From Roseivirga sp. E12 (GTDB lineage: Bacteria > Bacteroidota > Bacteroidia > Cytophagales > Cyclobacteriaceae): a stretch of 64,000 bases of DNA. The notes under the pieces are model-generated. The model saw only the letters and a list, made by a program, of their open reading frames with translations, did not search any database and was not told where the DNA came from. This document shows, one piece after another, positions 9,258 through 49,308 of the stretch; within the stretch, counting starts at the first letter, position 1, and every line of letters starts with the position of its first letter. A program made the translations under genes and the position numbers. Location of the stretch: positions 62,001-126,000 of the forward strand of contig NZ_JAGFMD010000007.1 of NCBI RefSeq assembly GCF_017592825.1, written 5' to 3'.

Positions 9258-9749
9258 CTAGTCTTCAGACTTATCTCCTTTTAGTAAGCCTTTACGCTTT
9301 AGGATCGTCTCTACAAACTTGACTTCATTCTGTGTTTTGAAAGCGTTGAAAGGAAAGAGCATCAATTGCGCCTTACTTACAACAAGAACAATCTGTTTTT
9401 TATCTACCCAGGCTCTTTTGATTTGATCCCATTTCATAGGCATTCCTTGCTTGGAATTCATCTTGATTAAGATCTGCTGGCTGTTGATCTCATATGAGAG
9501 CTTTTCAAAAAGCATTTTGCTTTGCTCCAACTGAGTTACACCAGCGAATTGGATTAACCAGAAAAGTAGATAAAGTGTGAAAGCGATAAGTGCTCCGATC
9601 CACCACCAATTAGATGGTATAACGAAAGTCATTGAAGAAATGGCAAGAACTATCAAACCAACCCACCATTGTTCTTTCAGTACATTGCGCATACCTGCGC
9701 GTCTGTAAGCCTTCTTATCTAAGGCGTATTTTTTAGTTTTTACTATCAT
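9258..9749 (-). CDS. YcxB-like membrane protein
   Basis: 163 residues. Two adjacent transmembrane helices (about residues 29-48 and 50-70) come first. The C-terminal domain of about 80 residues reads KMNSKQGMPMKWDQIKRAW, then IVLVVSKAQLMLFPFNAF and a final ETILKRKGLL, matching the YcxB-like (PF14317-type) arrangement of a small cytosolic beta domain after two helices. The function of that family is not established. The gene stands alone between the DMT transporter and nadC. Confidence 0.7.
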   Translation of the reverse strand: MIVKTKKYALDKKAYRRAGMRNVLKEQWWVGLIVLAISSMTFVIPSNWWWIGALIAFTLYLLFWLIQFAGVTQLEQSKMLFEKLSYEINSQQILIKMNSKQGMPMKWDQIKRAWVDKKQIVLVVSKAQLMLFPFNAFKTQNEVKFVETILKRKGLLKGDKSED

Positions 9750-9858
9750 CTTAAAGCCTTTCTATACACAGTGTCGAAAAAGGAACACAAACATAATGAT
9801 CAAAATGAAGGCTTCAATCATCTTAACTAAAAAATTGCGTTTGTTTCGAGCCAAAGTG

Positions 9859-10716
9859 TTATTCTGCTTTTAGACTGATATCCAGACTTTTGATAGAATG
9901 GGTAAGTGCACCAACGGAAATATAGTCAACTCCGGTCTCTGCAACCGAGCGAATGGTTTTTTCGGTAATTCCACCGGATGCTTCTGTCTCTGAACGGCCT
10001 GCCACATGCTGAACCGCTGCTGTCATTTCTTTGGGAGACATATTGTCGAGCATTATTCTGTCTACGCCACCAACGGCCAGGGCCTCCTGTACTTCTTCTA
10101 AGTTTCTTGTTTCAACCTCAATCTTTAGGTTGCGACCAGTCTCTGATAAGTACTTCTTGGTAGCATTGACAGATGCCGTTATGCCTCCGGCAAAGTCATT
10201 ATGGTTGTCTTTGAGCATGATCATATCATAGAGACCATATCGGTGGTTTACACCCCCTCCTATAACAACTGCCCACTTTTCCAGCATACGCATATTAGGG
10301 GTGGTTTTCCTGGTGTCGAGAAGTTTTGCCCCAGTACCTGAGATCAATTCTGTGAGTTGCGCAGTTTTAGTGGCGATACCGCTCATTCGCTGCATACAAT
10401 TAAGCAGTAATCGTTCTCCACCTAGAATGGCACGAACCTTTCCATGGAGTCTGAGAATGACATCACCAGTCTTTACATGATCACCATCTTTTACCAAACG
10501 CTCAATGGTCATTTCTCTATCAAGTCTGCTGAAAATGAGTGGTGCCAACTCCATTCCTGCTATCACGCCATCCTCTTTCATGATTAGGTAGGCTGATTTT
10601 ACTGCATCAGCAGAAATTGACGCGAGCGAAGAGTGATCACCATCTCCAAGATCTTCCTTGAATGCACGATCTATAAAATCTTCTAATCCCTCTTGGGTTA
10701 CGTAAGCAGGTCTCAT
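9859..10716 (-). CDS. nadC: Nicotinate-nucleotide pyrophosphorylase (carboxylating)
   Basis: 285 residues from the ATG at 10716. NadC converts quinolinate and PRPP to nicotinate mononucleotide, CO2 and pyrophosphate in de novo NAD synthesis. Seen are the quinolinate-site segments LLNCMQRMSGIATKT, LLDTRKTTPNMRMLEKWAV, GGGVNHRYGLYDMIMLKDNH, the core IEVETRNLEE and the late ASGGITEKTI plus GVDYISVGALTHS. An upstream frame of 10 codons is open but passes through the promoter box, so the ATG at 10716 is preferred. The DUF4783 gene lies upstream on the same strand, a pairing typical of Bacteroidota; nadA and nadB are not in the window. Confidence 0.96.
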   Translation of the reverse strand: MRPAYVTQEGLEDFIDRAFKEDLGDGDHSSLASISADAVKSAYLIMKEDGVIAGMELAPLIFSRLDREMTIERLVKDGDHVKTGDVILRLHGKVRAILGGERLLLNCMQRMSGIATKTAQLTELISGTGAKLLDTRKTTPNMRMLEKWAVVIGGGVNHRYGLYDMIMLKDNHNDFAGGITASVNATKKYLSETGRNLKIEVETRNLEEVQEALAVGGVDRIMLDNMSPKEMTAAVQHVAGRSETEASGGITEKTIRSVAETGVDYISVGALTHSIKSLDISLKAE

Positions 10717-10720
10717 GGTA

Positions 10721-10728
10721 CAAAAGTA
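10721..10728 (-). promoter_or_regulatory. -7 box (TACTTTTG) for nadC
   Basis: Exact TAnnTTTG match ending four bases before the nadC ATG, between nadC and the DUF4783 gene. It suggests nadC has its own near-leaderless transcript. Confidence 0.6.
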
Positions 10729-10764
10729 GCCAAAAGAGGAGTTCAATAAATGATTTTAGGGGAA

Positions 10765-11172
10765 TTAGCGGTCTTTCGTGAATTCTAAGCGATAGACCTT
10801 GTAGACCTTGTTGTATTCTTTTGCTCGAATGACAACGCGGTGCTTTCCAGAAGCTGATTTGTAGGTACCGATGGCATAGATTCTTGCACCAGAGTCATTA
10901 TCGCCATCATGGATAAACTCAAAACTATCGGCAGGATGTTGTTGAAAGAATTTTTTCAAGACAATCTCCGCTTGGTTGACACTGTATTCCTTGCGGACAC
11001 CATCGAGCTTGATTTCAACTTTTGAATGCAGATGCTTGGTCAACTCTTTGGAACTACTTGCCTTTAATGCCTCTTCTACATTCTCAATAATGCTTTCAGC
11101 GTCCTGTGCGTTTGCGGAAAACGCAACGCAAAGGGCGAGTACTAGAAGTGTGTTTCTTAATAGGTTATACAT
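10765..11172 (-). CDS. DUF4783 family exported protein
   Basis: 135 residues from the ATG at 11172: a Sec signal peptide (MYNLLRNTLLVLALCVAFSANAQ) and a mature domain of about 112 residues (SIIENVEEALKASSSKELTKHL, KLDGVRKEYSVNQAEIVLKKFF, ASGKHRVVIRAKE, VYRLEF). This matches DUF4783, a small NTF2-like periplasmic protein commonly encoded beside nadC in Bacteroidota. The function is unknown. A frame of 31 extra codons upstream is open but lacks a credible start. Confidence 0.82.
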   Translation of the reverse strand: MYNLLRNTLLVLALCVAFSANAQDAESIIENVEEALKASSSKELTKHLHSKVEIKLDGVRKEYSVNQAEIVLKKFFQQHPADSFEFIHDGDNDSGARIYAIGTYKSASGKHRVVIRAKEYNKVYKVYRLEFTKDR

Positions 11173-11287
11173 GTCTAAGGCTTGTATTCGATTCTTGAAC
11201 GAAAATTGTGCCAAATAGTATGCATCAGAGCATAATGAATTGAAATTAATACAATGCACCTCCACTTACAAACCAGCCTTTAATATT

Positions 11288-11295
11288 TATATTTG
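11288..11295 (+). promoter_or_regulatory. -7 box (TATATTTG) for gpmI
   Basis: Exact consensus, four bases before the gpmI ATG, implying a leaderless or nearly leaderless message. Confidence 0.6.
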
Positions 11296-11299
11296 AGGC

Positions 11300-12805
11300 A
11301 TGAACAAACGCGTTTTATTGATGATCCTTGATGGTTGGGGACTGGCACAAGATAAGTCGGTTTCTGCTATTGATCAGGCTAGAACACCTGTCTTAGATGG
11401 TCTTTTTCAAACCTACCCTAGTTCAAAACTTGAAGCATCGGGTTTGGCTGTTGGTTTACCAGCGGGCCAAATGGGTAATTCGGAGGTGGGCCATATGAAT
11501 ATCGGTGCCGGACGAGTGGTGTATCAAGACCTTGTTAAAATCAATAAGGCCGTTGAAGAAGGGACTTTAGGAGATAATGAAACGCTCAAGAAAGCTTTGA
11601 ACTATGCTCAGTCTGAAGGAAAGAAAGTCCACTTGATAGGTCTGGTTTCTGACGGTGGTGTACACTCTCATGTCAACCATTTGAAAGGCCTATTGTCTAT
11701 TTGTGCTGACTATAAGCTGGATCAGGTTTTTATTCATGCCTTTACGGATGGCCGAGATACAGACCCAAAAAGTGGGAAGGCCTTCGTACAAGATGTAATG
11801 GACCATGCTGAGAAGACTACCGGAAAAATAGGTTCAATCATCGGTAGATACTTTGCAATGGATCGAGATAACCGTTGGGAACGCGTTAAACTTTCCTATG
11901 ACGCCATGGTCAAAGGTGAAGGTTTGAAAACTGACGATCCAATTTCAGCCATCCAAACTTCTTATGATGAAGGGGTGACCGATGAGTTCATCCAACCCAT
12001 TATCAATACGGAGGGTGCCAATATTGAAGAAAGTGACGTAGTAATATGTTTCAACTTCAGAACGGATAGAGGCCGAGAAATTACTCAGGCATTGACACAG
12101 TCAGATTTTCCAGATCAAGAAATGACTAAGCTTGACTTAAAGTATGTGACCATGACTAATTATGACTACTCCTTTAATGGAGTTGAAGTAATGTTTGATA
12201 AAGACAATTTGACGAACACACTTGGTGATGTACTAGCTCAGGCGGGCAAAAAGCAGATAAGAATAGCAGAGACAGAAAAGTATCCGCATGTAACTTTCTT
12301 CTTTAGTGGCGGAAGGGAAACGGAGTTTGACGGTGAGAAAAGAATACTATGTCCATCGCCTAAGGTGGCCACATATGATATGCAACCTGAGATGAGCGCA
12401 AATGACATCAAAGGTGCAATTGTTACAGAATTGAATGCCGGAGAGGTTGATTTTGTCTGCCTGAATTTTGCAAATGCAGATATGGTAGGTCATACTGGAG
12501 TATTTGAAGCAGCGGTCAAGGCCTGTGAAACAGTCGATACATGTACCGGGCAAGTGTTGGAAGCAGCGCTCGCCAATGACTACACTTCCATTGTAATTGC
12601 GGATCATGGAAACTCAGACATTATGATTAATGCTGATGGCTCACCAAATACTGCGCATACCACAAACCTTGTACCCTGTATTCTAGTTGATAAGGATATG
12701 AAACCTGAAATGAAGGATGGTAAGCTTGGAGATTTGGCTCCGACTATACTAAAATTGATGGGTGTTCAAATTCCTTCAGAAATGACAGGCAACTTTCTTC
12801 TATGA
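11300..12805 (+). CDS. gpmI: 2,3-bisphosphoglycerate-independent phosphoglycerate mutase
   Basis: 501 residues, about the family length. It interconverts 3- and 2-phosphoglycerate in glycolysis. The alkaline-phosphatase-type metal sites are visible: LMILDGWG (Asp11), the phospho-acceptor Ser61 in GQMGNSEVGHMNIGAGR, VSDGGVHSH, the FTDGRDTDP segment, IGRYFAMDRDNRW, and the late NADMVGHTG and ADHGNSD metal ligands. The stop overlaps the start of the downstream lipoprotein gene by four bases (ATGA), so the two are cotranscribed. Confidence 0.97.
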   Translation: MNKRVLLMILDGWGLAQDKSVSAIDQARTPVLDGLFQTYPSSKLEASGLAVGLPAGQMGNSEVGHMNIGAGRVVYQDLVKINKAVEEGTLGDNETLKKALNYAQSEGKKVHLIGLVSDGGVHSHVNHLKGLLSICADYKLDQVFIHAFTDGRDTDPKSGKAFVQDVMDHAEKTTGKIGSIIGRYFAMDRDNRWERVKLSYDAMVKGEGLKTDDPISAIQTSYDEGVTDEFIQPIINTEGANIEESDVVICFNFRTDRGREITQALTQSDFPDQEMTKLDLKYVTMTNYDYSFNGVEVMFDKDNLTNTLGDVLAQAGKKQIRIAETEKYPHVTFFFSGGRETEFDGEKRILCPSPKVATYDMQPEMSANDIKGAIVTELNAGEVDFVCLNFANADMVGHTGVFEAAVKACETVDTCTGQVLEAALANDYTSIVIADHGNSDIMINADGSPNTAHTTNLVPCILVDKDMKPEMKDGKLGDLAPTILKLMGVQIPSEMTGNFLL

Positions 12806-46052: not shown

Positions 46053-46083
46053 CCGACTAGACTTCCTAGTACTAAAGAATGGA

Positions 46084-46108
46084 GCCCTCTTACGGAGGGC
46101 TTATTTTT
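46084..46108 (+). terminator. Terminator after the M28 peptidase
   Basis: GCCCTC and GAGGGC form a 6-bp stem around TTACG, followed by TTATTTTTT. Confidence 0.88.
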
Positions 46109-46217: not shown

Positions 46218-47384
46218 GTGTTGAAAATTATAATCATACTTTGTTCGGTTGTAGCATTTTGCTCGTGTTCTAATCAAAACGGAGAGAAATATCTTTTGGA
46301 GACTACATTTTCTAGTCAAAAGAATTTAGTCTTGGAGGTCGATAGCATCTCAATCGATGTAGGAGATTACGGGTTATTCTATTATCCGTTAAGTACAACA
46401 GCTGAAATTCAAGGGACACGTTTCTATTTTGGCTGGAACCATACGACTTTTTCACTTGATATAGTCAACTTAGACAAATCAGAGTATTACAAATCCATTA
46501 AGTATGAGGTCAATGGACCGAATGGCATCGGTGATGTGAAAGGATTGTCAGTGGTAGATTTTGATTCAATATTTTTTCTGTCATCTCAATACTTGACTTT
46601 GATTGATTCTAATACCAACGTTACTTCCAAATGGGGTATTAATGAAAAGAATGAGTTTCAAGGATTTAGTTCTCAGGATCATAATTTAACTACTGAAGAA
46701 ACATTCAATATTTTCTTTGATAATAGAACAAAGAAACTTTATGCAAGACTTCACTTTCCACGCTTCGCTTGGTGTGACACAGAACTTGGCTATTATAATG
46801 AGAATTTTATTGGCGAGTTAGACTTGTTTAATCTCTCATTTAGGGAATTGAACATTGGCTACCCCCCAGAGTTTCGAGAACTATCATTTGGTTTTCGAGA
46901 TATTCCTGCAGTGACCTTCGATCCATCTGGCTTAATTAACTACACCTTTTCTATCAGTTCGAATATTTATCAATATTCGTTAGAAACCGGTAAAACATCC
47001 TCCTTTGGTGGTGCTAGTGACTTCACAAGGAACCATGCCGATGCTTTACAAATTGAAGACTGCCCCGATACACCGCTTGGAATGAAGCATAATTTGCTGA
47101 ATGTTAAGTTCATGCATTTGTTACAGGACCCTTATAGGAAACTCTACTATAGGTTTCATTGGGGAGATGTTCCAGAACATAGGGCAGATGGGCGATTCAA
47201 TGCTTACAACGATAAACCTCTATTCTTGACAGTCTTTGATGATCAGCTCAAAAAGTTGATGGAAATGGAGGTAGATAGAAAGCAAGGAGCTGCTTGGTGT
47301 TTTGTGGACGAAGCCGGACTACATATTTTAAAACCAAGGGGAAGTGAGAATGTATTAGGGTTTAACCTTTATAAATTTTTATAA
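46218..47384 (+). CDS. DUF4221-like lipoprotein (probable beta propeller)
   Basis: 388 residues from GTG 46218. A lipoprotein signal peptide ends CSCSNQ (Cys about 17-18). The rest is mainly beta strands in repeated blocks (YFGWNHTTFSLDIVNL; FDSIFFLSSQYLTLIDS; KKLYARLHFPRFAWC; KLYYRFHWGDVPEHRADGRFNAYN), compatible with a DUF4221 or six-bladed-propeller Bacteroidota lipoprotein. DUF4221 is my best match by pattern and not certain. It heads a tight run of four short exported products (gaps of 2, 9 and 30 bases). The function is unknown; a binding or sensing role is inference. Confidence 0.62.
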   Translation: MLKIIIILCSVVAFCSCSNQNGEKYLLETTFSSQKNLVLEVDSISIDVGDYGLFYYPLSTTAEIQGTRFYFGWNHTTFSLDIVNLDKSEYYKSIKYEVNGPNGIGDVKGLSVVDFDSIFFLSSQYLTLIDSNTNVTSKWGINEKNEFQGFSSQDHNLTTEETFNIFFDNRTKKLYARLHFPRFAWCDTELGYYNENFIGELDLFNLSFRELNIGYPPEFRELSFGFRDIPAVTFDPSGLINYTFSISSNIYQYSLETGKTSSFGGASDFTRNHADALQIEDCPDTPLGMKHNLLNVKFMHLLQDPYRKLYYRFHWGDVPEHRADGRFNAYNDKPLFLTVFDDQLKKLMEMEVDRKQGAAWCFVDEAGLHILKPRGSENVLGFNLYKFL

Positions 47385-47386
47385 CC

Positions 47387-47785
47387 ATGAAGAATTCTGC
47401 ATTGAGCTTTGTCTTCTTATTGCTCTTTTGCTCATGCACTAATAATGAGCCAGATGACAGTTCTGTAATAATTAAATCGATTGTTGAGAACGAAATGTCT
47501 CATGAAATAAGAAAGGAAGGAAAGACTTTTATATTCTTTCTTCAAAACGCGGAATGCAAGTGTTCAGAAGAAACTTTGGACAGAATTAGAGCCTTTGATG
47601 AGACAAAAGGTAAGCTAATAATCGTAGTTAATAAACGCTCACACTTTTCTGTCCCGAAGCTTCAAGCGAAGCAAGAAAGTTTAAAATATATAAGCATAAA
47701 TACATTGCTGTCTTATGGCTTCTTCCAAGACAAAGACATGCTTGTTGAACTTGATGGAAATAAATTGATTTATACGAACCTTTAA
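47387..47785 (+). CDS. Small thioredoxin-like lipoprotein
   Basis: 132 residues, lipobox FCSCT (Cys about 17). The mature part has KTFIFFLQNAECKCSEETLDRI, LIIVVNKR and a final DMLVELDGNKLIYTNL, a strand-helix-strand order like a reduced thioredoxin or AhpC/TSA fold with a CKC pair in the place of the active-site CxxC. This is inference from pattern; no family is confirmed. It begins 2 bases after the DUF4221-like stop and is followed by two Cys-containing secreted mini-proteins. Confidence 0.6.
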   Translation: MKNSALSFVFLLLFCSCTNNEPDDSSVIIKSIVENEMSHEIRKEGKTFIFFLQNAECKCSEETLDRIRAFDETKGKLIIVVNKRSHFSVPKLQAKQESLKYISINTLLSYGFFQDKDMLVELDGNKLIYTNL

Positions 47786-47794
47786 TTAGAAGAA

Positions 47795-48025
47795 ATGAAA
47801 AAACTATTAGCGAGCGTACTGTCATTATCATTTGTGATAGCAATGACTATTTATCAGCCTAGTAATGTAAACGCTAGAGAGTATGGCGAAGGGGATAGGT
47901 ATAGACCTGGTACCTGTACATTGATCGATGAAGAAGGTCCTGTGGAGATAGCAATATGTACTAAAAAAGTTGCAGATGGCCCTTGTTTTAAGGAGGTGAA
48001 ATGTGAGCAGCCTATTCCAGAGTAA
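47795..48025 (+). CDS. Secreted four-cysteine mini-protein (copy 1, NVEALA-like)
   Basis: 76 residues. Signal peptide (MKKLLASVLSLSFVIAMTIYQ...) with probable cleavage after SNVNA. The mature part, about 47 residues, has TCTLIDEEG, then C, then VADGPCFKEVKC: four cysteines. It shares T-C-T-x-I-D-x-E-G and V-x-D-G-P-C-x-K-E-x-x-C with the next gene. The NVNA near the cleavage site recalls NVEALA-family Bacteroidota peptides, but the match is weak. RBS-like AGAAGAA lies just before the ATG. Confidence 0.72.
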   Translation: MKKLLASVLSLSFVIAMTIYQPSNVNAREYGEGDRYRPGTCTLIDEEGPVEIAICTKKVADGPCFKEVKCEQPIPE

Positions 48026-48055
48026 AATTCTTATGTAATATTAGAACTTCAAAAA

Positions 48056-48280
48056 ATGAAAAACTTATTAAAAGCTTTATTCATCATCACAATGTTTGCC
48101 TTTAGCACGACTTTAAATGGACAGTCTGAGACCAATTATTACAAACTCAAAACCTGTACTGGTATTGACCCTGAGGGGAATACATTTGACGGTGCGATGT
48201 GTAAAGATATTGTTGAGGATGGTCCTTGTGACAAAGAATCTATATGCTATGGGCCTGATGATGTAATTCCTTATGAGTGA
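48056..48280 (+). CDS. Secreted four-cysteine mini-protein (copy 2)
   Basis: 74 residues. A signal peptide with likely cleavage after TLNG or at Gln23 is followed by about 52 residues with KTCTGIDPEG, C in DGAMCKD, IVEDGPCDKESIC and an acidic end PDDVIPYE. Four cysteines align with those of the previous gene after a 3- or 4-residue gap, so the two are tandem paralogues, diverged outside the cysteine frame. Probably two disulfides outside the cytoplasm. Role unknown. Confidence 0.72.
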   Translation: MKNLLKALFIITMFAFSTTLNGQSETNYYKLKTCTGIDPEGNTFDGAMCKDIVEDGPCDKESICYGPDDVIPYE

Positions 48281-48540: not shown

Positions 48541-49308
48541 CTACTTAATTATTGCTTTATGAATAAACCTGAGTCCCTCTAACGTGAGGTGACGATTCAC
48601 CTGATCGAATCGATCATGGAGTGGATGCAAGATAGAAGAAAGACCACCCGTGGCGACTACTTTCACCTCCTTATTTAACTCAGCCTGAATCCGATCTAGC
48701 ATACCTTCGACCATACTGACATAACCCCAAAGCACACCATTTTGTATAGCCGTTGTCGTATTTGTTCCAATGACGGAATCTGGGAGCTCCAAAGGAACTT
48801 CTGGTAGTTGAGCCGTATTACCAACCAATGCCACAATTGCCGTCTTTAGCCCAGGCGCTATATTGACTCCTTTTATCTTTCCACTCTTTTCTACAACTGT
48901 GAAAGTCAGGGCCGTGCCAAAATCCACAATGACAATATCCTCCTTGTAAAGCACGTGCCCAGCCATGGCGTTGGCGATTAAATCAGTGCCAATCTCATGT
49001 GGGTTTTGGGTGCTGATAGGTAAGTCCCCATAGATTTTTGGTCCTACAAAAACGGGCTCTTTGTCAATAAGTGGTTTTGTGAACTCTGAAAGAATGTCGT
49101 TCAATTGTGGAACGACAGAAGAAATAACTATTCGATTGACATCTTCCAATTTCAGATTTGCCTCCAAAAAGTTCAACCTGAGAAATAGCTCATACTCAAT
49201 CTGGTTTTTTATAGGTACGGTTTCAAAGCGCCATTCTTGAATCCATGAGTTTCCATCATGAATACCGAATACAATGTTGGTGTTGCCCGCATCAATTGCT
49301 AATAGCAT
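48541..49308 (-). CDS. coaX: Type III pantothenate kinase, classical type (second copy)
   Basis: 255 residues, the length of the classical CoaX. ASKHA motifs: LLAIDAGNTNIVFGIHD (phosphate 1), EIGTDLIANAMAGH, IVIVDFGTALTFTVV (phosphate 2), GVNIAPGLKTAI and VVATGGLSSIL (adenosine). Compared with the copy at 18268, this one reads IGTD where that reads LGMDR, and differs across most of its length, so they are old paralogues, or one came by transfer. Both keep the main catalytic motifs. One base pair of coupling to the 73-residue gene downstream. Confidence 0.92.
   Translation of the reverse strand: MLLAIDAGNTNIVFGIHDGNSWIQEWRFETVPIKNQIEYELFLRLNFLEANLKLEDVNRIVISSVVPQLNDILSEFTKPLIDKEPVFVGPKIYGDLPISTQNPHEIGTDLIANAMAGHVLYKEDIVIVDFGTALTFTVVEKSGKIKGVNIAPGLKTAIVALVGNTAQLPEVPLELPDSVIGTNTTTAIQNGVLWGYVSMVEGMLDRIQAELNKEVKVVATGGLSSILHPLHDRFDQVNRHLTLEGLRFIHKAIIK

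What the first reader, a model, noticed from the sequence alone, without database searches (positions are those of the whole stretch)
46218..48280. Locus of a DUF4221-like lipoprotein, a reduced thioredoxin-like lipoprotein and two secreted four-cysteine mini-proteins
Four exported products are packed with gaps of 2, 9 and 30 bases. The two smallest are tandem paralogues with a strict frame T-C-T-x-I-D-x-E-G ... C ... V-x-D-G-P-C-x-K-E-x-x-C, and differ elsewhere, which suggests selection on a disulfide-knotted secreted product. The layout (large beta-rich lipoprotein plus small Cys peptide) recalls Bacteroides NVEALA loci, whose function is unknown, but the NVEALA motif itself is only faintly visible (SNVNA at the cleavage site of copy 1). 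The CKC-bearing lipoprotein between them could be a thiol partner. A peptide made and handled by its own operon partners is inference.
Basis: partly seen in the sequence, partly recalled or inferred. Interest (0 to 1): 0.75.

Follow-up and report, generated by a model that had tools for sequence, protein, structure and literature searches.

The report
Cysteine peptide, propeller and thioredoxin cassette
Four neighbouring bacterial genes encode two small, probably secreted cysteine peptides, a ring-shaped (beta-propeller) lipoprotein and a small thioredoxin-like lipoprotein, and similar kits with different peptides recur in related bacteria, gut Bacteroides included, which makes their unknown job testable.

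Summary
The four ORFs are real and lie as described. ORF 1 is DUF4221, a beta-propeller by model, with solved relative 3s9j. ORF 2 is a small lipoprotein with CKC whose model best resembles thioredoxins, weakly. ORFs 3-4 are paralogous acidic four-cysteine peptides of no known family. The layout recurs: in the genus 28 of 99 DUF4221 genes have a predicted exported mini-protein with >=4 Cys within 150 bp (controls 2 of 79) and 26 of 99 a small CxC/CxxC lipoprotein (controls 2 of 79). The window's peptide type goes with CxC lipoproteins (2 of 2 in the genus, two more loci in another family; none of 22 CxxC loci). By sequence the peptides are not NVEALA, but NVEALA peptides have a propeller gene adjacent in 64 of 73 loci, 3 of them DUF4221. 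In both groups the mature peptide, far more than its signal or leader, tracks the neighbouring propeller. Best reading: a co-inherited module in which the thioredoxin-like protein oxidises or isomerises a secreted peptide recognised by its own propeller; antagonism, immunity or signalling remain open. No paper on it was found.

The parts
46082..46102 (+). intrinsic-terminator-like hairpin after the upstream gene
46218..47384 (+). DUF4221 lipoprotein, beta-propeller (GTG start at 46218; a TTG start at 46221 is possible)
   Evidence: PF13970 E 5.1e-20, 72.7 bits, cut-off 23.4; model pLDDT 84; Foldseek first hit 3s9j, a DUF4221 crystal structure, E 7.1e-22
47387..47785 (+). small thioredoxin-like lipoprotein, 132 aa
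   Evidence: model pLDDT 78.7; 48 of the 50 hits shown carry titles of thioredoxin-fold proteins as I judge them, best E 4.5e-3, none <= 0.001, TM at most 0.47; no Pfam or NCBIfam family over a cut-off
47555..47563 (+). codons of the Cys-Lys-Cys motif (residues 57-59)
   Evidence: aligned with CxxC of 22 relatives; CGC in L012, CAC in L029; CSC in L227
47795..48025 (+). four-cysteine mini-protein 1, 76 aa, signal peptide predicted by a simple rule of mine, acidic mature part (net -4)
   Evidence: no Pfam/NCBIfam family over a cut-off
48056..48280 (+). four-cysteine mini-protein 2, 74 aa, paralogue of mini-protein 1 (net -8)
   Evidence: no Pfam/NCBIfam family

Best explanation
This is one instance of a co-inherited three-part export module that occurs patchily in class Bacteroidia: (1) one or more Sec-type, acidic, mostly even-cysteine peptides; (2) a lipoprotein beta-propeller (here DUF4221; in Bacteroidales mostly the six-bladed DUF5128/TolB_like type) that recognises the mature peptide of its own locus; (3) a small thioredoxin-like lipoprotein (CxC here, CxxC elsewhere) that makes or shuffles the peptide's disulfides in the periplasm. 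Shown: the parts, their recurrence, the matching of mature peptide to propeller, and the matching of peptide type to thioredoxin type. Inferred: that the propeller physically binds the peptide, and that the thioredoxin-like protein acts on it. Most likely use (inference, about 0.35): the peptide is a polymorphic ligand or effector between cells and the propeller is its cognate immunity or receptor protein; solitary propellers, tandem diverged peptides and a patchy, AT-rich locus fit this. Membrane lysis is unlikely because the mature parts are acidic and hydrophilic.
For: Recurrence: 28 of 99 and 26 of 99 DUF4221 genes against 2 of 79 controls each (2 of 37 among exported controls); 17 of 99 have both. 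Other anchor: a CxxC-lipoprotein profile over 395 genomes of the class gave 11 matches in 9 genomes; of the 9 upstream proteins tested 7 are DUF4221, 1 DUF5128, 1 unassigned. NVEALA: propeller adjacent in 64 of 73 loci, 59 downstream and 5 upstream (control ORFs followed by one: 13 of 134); CxxC lipoprotein within 3 kb in 28 of 73, no control run. Pairing: mature peptide vs DUF4221 similarity r 0.78 (38 loci), 0.52 after removing near-orthologues (33), against 0.14 and 0.06 for the signal peptide; NVEALA r 0.61 (55 loci) and 0.34 (49), leader 0.04 and -0.01. Thioredoxin-like vs DUF4221 r 0.76 (24 loci), vs mini r 0.72 (21). CxC only with GPC-type peptides. Even cysteine number in 47 of 55 NVEALA mature parts. 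Precedent: deleting the bacteroidetocin locus's thiol oxidoreductase attenuates toxin activity (PMC6671954, section 7).
Against: 55 of 99 DUF4221 genes have neither a nearby mini-protein (>=2 Cys) nor a small thiol lipoprotein by my rule, so the propeller has other uses or the rule misses them. L027 has the window's peptide type and no thioredoxin-like gene. 45 of 73 NVEALA loci show no CxxC lipoprotein within 3 kb (some contigs are short). Correlations can come from co-inheritance without binding; when permuting only within genomes the largest chance r for thioredoxin vs DUF4221 is 0.70 and for mini vs DUF4221 0.55. The thioredoxin fold of ORF 2 rests on weak hits. Nothing here shows secretion, disulfides or binding.
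Confidence: 0.5

Rival explanations
1. Peptide toxin (bacteriocin) system: the peptide kills relatives, the propeller lipoprotein gives immunity, the thioredoxin-like protein matures the toxin.
For: Tandem diverged peptides; variable mature part behind a conserved NVEALA leader (median pair similarity 0.11 against 0.44); peptide-propeller matching; solitary propellers that could be orphan immunity genes; patchy distribution (2 of 19 genus genomes; 7 of 390 order genomes at E <= 0.1); thiol oxidoreductase precedent in bacteroidetocins.
Against: Mature parts are acidic and hydrophilic (median net charge -5 in 50 genus minis, -2 in 131 NVEALA copies; 6% at +2 or more in each), unlike the two basic bacteroidetocins (+2, +6); none of the four genes is an ABC transporter-peptidase; no PADLOC match; two orthologous peptide pairs (L048/L049) show a constrained codon pattern.
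Confidence: 0.25
2. Peptide signal: the oxidised peptide is a pheromone or self-marker and the propeller is its receptor.
For: Peptide-propeller matching; acidic soluble peptides.
Against: None of the four genes looks like a regulator, kinase or sigma factor; a lipoprotein alone cannot signal inward without a partner.
Confidence: 0.2
3. Structural or metal-handling module: the peptide is a stable subunit or metal-binding cofactor of the propeller and the thioredoxin-like protein keeps its thiols in the needed state.
For: Cysteine peptides with a thiol partner; the DUF4221 model resembles BtuG-type vitamin-B12-capturing propellers from rank 10 on; about 10 of 99 DUF4221 stretches hold an RND-like efflux gene (no control).
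Against: Strong diversification of the peptide; preference for even cysteine numbers fits disulfides better; RND neighbours are a minority.
Confidence: 0.15
4. Coincidence: chance small ORFs beside an ordinary lipoprotein pair.
For: Open frames of about 75 codons do occur by chance; no proteomics.
Against: Paralogy and recurrence with matching partners in another family, enrichment, codon-position pattern.
Confidence: 0.02

Closest known systems
NVEALA peptide loci of Bacteroidales (PF14055)
   Same: Small exported cysteine peptide with a beta-propeller lipoprotein gene adjacent (64 of 73 loci; 3 of them DUF4221) and in 28 of 73 a CxxC lipoprotein within 3 kb; mature part tracks the propeller.
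   Different: No PF14055 match for the window peptides; an ordinary short signal peptide instead of the NVEALA leader; CxC rather than CxxC; DUF4221 rather than mostly six-bladed propellers; peptides last in the unit.
DUF4221 family (PF13970; crystal structure 3s9j, BVU_1028)
   Same: ORF 1 is a member, and its model has 3s9j as first structural hit.
   Different: No function found for the family; 3s9j was seen only as a hit title.
Bacteroidetocins (class IIf bacteriocins; PMC6671954, passages and section 7 read)
   Same: Four-cysteine peptide with a dedicated thiol oxidoreductase gene in Bacteroidota.
   Different: Bacteroidetocins have GG leaders, an ABC transporter-peptidase, a five-TM protein, basic peptides and no obvious immunity protein; here a Sec-type signal, acidic peptides, a propeller lipoprotein and no transporter among the four genes.
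DUF6436 thioredoxin-like proteins (PF20029) with a CPC motif
   Same: The CxC profile A9 reaches such proteins weakly (E 1.9e-5 for L217); L217 matches PF20029 (E 3e-16) and AhpC/thioredoxin families over their cut-offs.
   Different: The window protein has no Pfam match over a cut-off; its G072 relatives match DUF6436 only below the cut-off.

Membership tests
DUF4221 (PF13970) | profile match over the curated cut-off | tested here: met
   72.7 bits, cut-off 23.4, profile positions 4-309 of 311
DUF4221 (PF13970) | same fold as the solved member 3s9j | tested here: met
   E 7.1e-22, TM 0.72/0.77 (predicted model)
Thioredoxin fold | structural match of the CKC lipoprotein | tested here: inconclusive
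   top hits are thioredoxin-fold proteins, best E 4.5e-3, none at <= 0.001, TM at most 0.47; profile hits to thioredoxin chains only at E 0.022-0.49
Thioredoxin fold | homology of the CxC group to thioredoxin-family proteins | tested here: met
   profile A9 (3 rows, window first) matches DUF6436/AhpC-type proteins at E 1.9e-5 to 8.6e-4 per genome (family names checked for L217 only); modest
Thioredoxin fold | CxxC active site | tested here: not met
   CKC instead
NVEALA (PF14055) | profile match over the cut-off | tested here: not met
   none at the locus, 0 of 19 genomes over the cut-off
NVEALA-type locus (architecture) | exported Cys peptide in one unit with a beta-propeller lipoprotein gene | tested here: met
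   window; 64 of 73 NVEALA loci
NVEALA-type locus (architecture) | thioredoxin-like lipoprotein in the locus | tested here: inconclusive
   28 of 73 NVEALA loci have a CxxC lipoprotein within 3 kb, no control; window has a CxC one
Bacteroidetocins | GG leader and ABC transporter-peptidase | tested here: not met
   not among the four genes; neighbours judged by eye only; features
Anti-phage defence systems (PADLOC) | model match | tested here: not met
   0 families for all four proteins at E <= 1
Disulfide-bonded secreted peptide | oxidised cysteines outside the cytoplasm | not testable with these tools
   signal peptide by a simple rule only; even cysteine counts in NVEALA peptides

The most novel reading that the evidence does not exclude
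NVEALA loci and DUF4221/four-cysteine-peptide loci are one class-wide polymorphic ligand-receptor (or effector-immunity) system: a propeller lipoprotein reads the mature, disulfide-bonded peptide of its own locus, and a locus-matched thioredoxin folds it, giving bacteria, gut Bacteroides included, many private peptide channels for recognising self and rivals.
Probability: 0.3. Interest if true: 0.88.

Novelty: new variant of a known kind. Interest (0 to 1): 0.64.

Why it matters
NVEALA and DUF4221 are named families for which I found no paper by name in the held library. Showing that both sit in the same peptide-propeller-thioredoxin layout, and that the mature peptide but hardly its signal or leader tracks the propeller, turns two unknown families into one testable question: does each propeller bind its own peptide? 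The answer would apply to many loci in Bacteroides, Phocaeicola and Parabacteroides.

Tried and rejected
Rejected: NVEALA membership by sequence; anti-phage defence; a 409-aa protein beside the second own-genome locus L012 as a DUF4221 member (not among the six matches; it still stood as seventh row of A3). Weak: PDDEXK_4 and TraF matches of the CKC protein and DUF5981 of mini 1 are below cut-offs. A phylum-wide profile search for the peptide type matched 10 of 395 genomes at E <= 0.01, of which only the own genome is strong (next best 1.1e-4), so this type is rare. Promoter scans gave nothing above shuffles. A tree of 102 DUF4221 proteins does not place the five GPC-peptide loci in one supported clade (0.49; window with L027 0.95; the two G072 loci 1.0). 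Counting caveats: two nearly identical membrane proteins (L079, L081) and one chance ORF (L067) are false >=2-Cys minis; they do not enter the >=4-Cys count and were dropped. The 26 DUF4221 genes with a thiol lipoprotein share 24 such genes. One of 100 match rows was dropped as a second piece of the same frame. The six-bladed profiles were seeded with neighbours of NVEALA peptides, so the two B. ihuae loci L142 and L144 match by construction, and the 73 loci include several from one contig and one near-identical pair (L205, L206). The first NVEALA pairing test (57 loci, mature r 0.49) included two with very short mature parts; one search repeats it without them. The 131 NVEALA copies count peptides in overlapping loci more than once. 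Papers: PMC6671954, 12 of 29 passages and section 7; PMC10434189, passages, nothing relevant; all others search listings only (one search listed 30 of 68, one search listed 12 of 18).
Full report
1. The observation. Four + strand ORFs with gaps of 2, 9 and 30 bases occupy 46218-48280. A terminator-like hairpin precedes them (46082-46102) and a convergent gene follows (48317). GC is 34-38% across the unit against 40-46% in the 6 kb before and 4 kb after. The two small ORFs share the stated frame.

2. The parts. ORF 1 is DUF4221 (PF13970, E 5e-20, over the cut-off). Its model (52-row alignment, pLDDT 84, pTM 0.82) finds the solved DUF4221 protein 3s9j first (E 7e-22) and then many beta-propellers. 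ORF 2 has no Pfam or NCBIfam match over a cut-off. Its model (25-row alignment, pLDDT 78.7, pTM 0.63) gives Foldseek hits of which 48 of the 50 shown are, by title and my knowledge, thioredoxin-fold proteins; but the best E is 4.5e-3, none reaches 0.001, and TM is at most 0.47. A profile of its relatives finds thioredoxin chains only at E 0.022-0.49. It carries CKC where 22 relatives have CxxC. ORFs 3 and 4 have no family. Their mature parts, cut by a simple rule of mine, are acidic (-4 and -8).

3. The same layout in the genome and genus. The own genome has six DUF4221 genes. One (L012) repeats the order DUF4221, CGC lipoprotein, two GPC peptides. Three of the other four have one or two exported cysteine mini-proteins just upstream, and one has none. 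Across 19 genomes of the genus there are 100 matches in 15 genomes, of which I used 99 frames. Of these, 28 have a mini-protein with at least 4 cysteines within 150 bp, 37 one with at least 2 (three of them false), 26 a small CxC/CxxC lipoprotein, 17 both (>=4 Cys and thiol), and 44 at least one (>=2 Cys or thiol). Control genes of 250 aa or more, over 2 kb away in the same stretches, give 2, 4 and 2 of 79; the 37 exported controls give 2, 3 and 2. The window itself counts only by its thioredoxin-like gene under this rule, since its peptides lie beyond 150 bp. 55 of 99 have neither. Genes in related genomes are not independent, so the Fisher p values (1.5e-6 and 6e-6) are only a guide.

4. Checks from other anchors. 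A profile of the four own-genome peptides hit one more genus genome, G007 (2 of 19 with the own; E 5e-8 and 0.005), where one hit (L027) lies beside DUF4221 without a thioredoxin-like gene and the other (L028) beside a 430-aa protein that I did not identify. In the order it hit 7 of 390 at E <= 0.1, of which, beyond the own genome, only G072 of another family was strong (E 3e-8). There the peptides precede a DUF4221 gene and a CAC lipoprotein. A CxC profile (6 of 194 genomes with matches) and a peptide profile (2 of 59 with matches), both of which contained the first G072 locus, each hit a second G072 locus that neither contained. That locus (L227) has two GPC peptides, DUF4221 and a CSC lipoprotein in that order. 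A CxxC-lipoprotein profile over 395 genomes of the class matched in 9 (11 matches); of 9 upstream proteins tested by Pfam, 7 are DUF4221, 1 is DUF5128 and 1 is unassigned. One of the 9 (L119, genome G018) belongs to the genus census; two loci, L125 and L126, were not tested.

5. Pairing of peptide type and thioredoxin type. Of 24 such genes beside DUF4221 in the genus, 22 are CxxC and none of these has a GPC peptide (three have no mini at all by my rule); the 2 CxC ones, both in the own genome, have GPC peptides. Both G072 loci are CxC with GPC peptides. They were found by these very features, so they add less than they seem. L027 has GPC peptides and no thioredoxin-like gene. The five DUF4221 proteins of these loci do not form one supported clade.

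6. The NVEALA comparison. In the genus no PF14055 match passes the cut-off (0 of 19), so the peptides are not NVEALA proteins. In the class, 4 of 295 genomes match at E <= 0.001, 3 over the cut-off. A scan of named genomes with the NVEALA leader gave 73 loci; 69 titles name Bacteroidales-type organisms as I judge them and 4 (L168, L183, L205, L206) name Firmicutes MAGs, possibly mis-binned. A propeller gene is adjacent (within 400 bp) in 64 of 73, 59 downstream and 5 upstream: 34 and 27 by two six-bladed profiles, 3 by the DUF4221 profile; a CxxC lipoprotein lies within 3 kb in 28 of 73, a count without control. Control ORFs are followed by a propeller in 13 of 134. Pfam confirms DUF4221 beside an NVEALA peptide in L132 (E 8e-44), DUF5128 or TolB_like beside others, and a CxxC protein with a DUF1573 domain in L129.

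7. Peptide and propeller match. In 38 genus loci, similarity of mature peptides correlates with similarity of their DUF4221 (r 0.78; largest of 2000 permutations 0.25, or 0.55 when permuting within genomes). For the signal peptide r is 0.14 (p 0.0025). After dropping near-orthologous propellers (33 loci) the values are 0.52 and 0.06. In 55 NVEALA loci (of 73; the others lack a detected peptide, motif, downstream propeller or a mature part of 20 residues) r is 0.61 for the mature part and 0.04 for the leader; in 49 loci 0.34 and -0.01. Thioredoxin-like proteins track DUF4221 (r 0.76, 24 loci; largest permutation 0.29, within genomes 0.70) and peptide (r 0.72, 21 loci; largest 0.48). A specific peptide-propeller relation predicts this. 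Co-inheritance of whole loci would also raise r; the flat leader speaks against that as the whole story, but leaders are short and alike and carry less signal.

8. Are the peptides real proteins? Between orthologous loci of G013 and G007 (L048/L049), differences at codon positions 1/2/3 are 25/16/50 and 16/10/40 for the two peptides, and the window pair shows 26/26/44. Synonymous sites are saturated there, so no dN/dS is claimed. In the pair L044/L047 peptides evolve fast (dN and dS 0.56 and 1.0 for one, 0.99 and 1.19 for the other). NVEALA mature parts have an even number of cysteines in 47 of 55.

9. Mechanism. Shown: co-inheritance and matching. Inferred: Sec export; oxidation or isomerisation by the CKC lipoprotein (the own genome has one VKOR match, so an oxidising partner is possible); binding of the oxidised peptide by the propeller. 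Membrane lysis is unlikely given acidic, hydrophilic mature parts. The bacteroidetocin work is a precedent for a locus-borne thiol oxidoreductase whose deletion attenuates peptide activity (PMC6671954, section 7), but that four-gene region has a transporter and no propeller. The choice between effector-immunity, signal-receptor and structural roles is open; I lean to effector or ligand with a cognate binding protein.

10. Novelty. DUF4221 and NVEALA are known by name. The library held no paper with either word, and the listings showed none on such a module; the library lacks most subscription journals and preprints.

Noticed in passing
L012, L041, L042, L046, L053, L057, L059, L104 (RND); L118, L029 (HlyD): 10 of 99 genus DUF4221 places have an RND-like permease ORF in their stretch (no control; two pairs of places share one stretch), and HlyD-family genes lie beside the cassettes of L118 and L029. 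Possible insertion hotspot or functional link.
   Followed up: partly
L012, minus strand, 9722-11943: A 119-aa exported protein, a 409-aa lipoprotein that looks like a six-bladed propeller (by eye) and a 186-aa lipoprotein lie just upstream of the second own-genome locus; the small ones have no Pfam match. Perhaps two cassettes side by side.
   Followed up: partly
NVEALA peptides, e.g. L128, L129, L148: The conserved stretch [LM]SxLxLxN[VI]EALA follows a hydrophobic helix by about 15 residues, more like a processed propeptide than a plain signal peptidase site.
   Followed up: no
L079:4626-4964, L081:6124-6462: A conserved 113-aa membrane protein precedes one DUF4221 subfamily in two genomes; not a cysteine mini-protein.
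   Followed up: no
L066, L069, L090: A conserved 167-aa exported protein precedes another DUF4221 subfamily in three genomes; it looks DinB-like (recalled, not tested).
   Followed up: no
window 48541-49308: The gene beyond the convergent small ORF looks like type III pantothenate kinase (recalled likeness, not searched); useful as a flank for an empty-site test.
   Followed up: no
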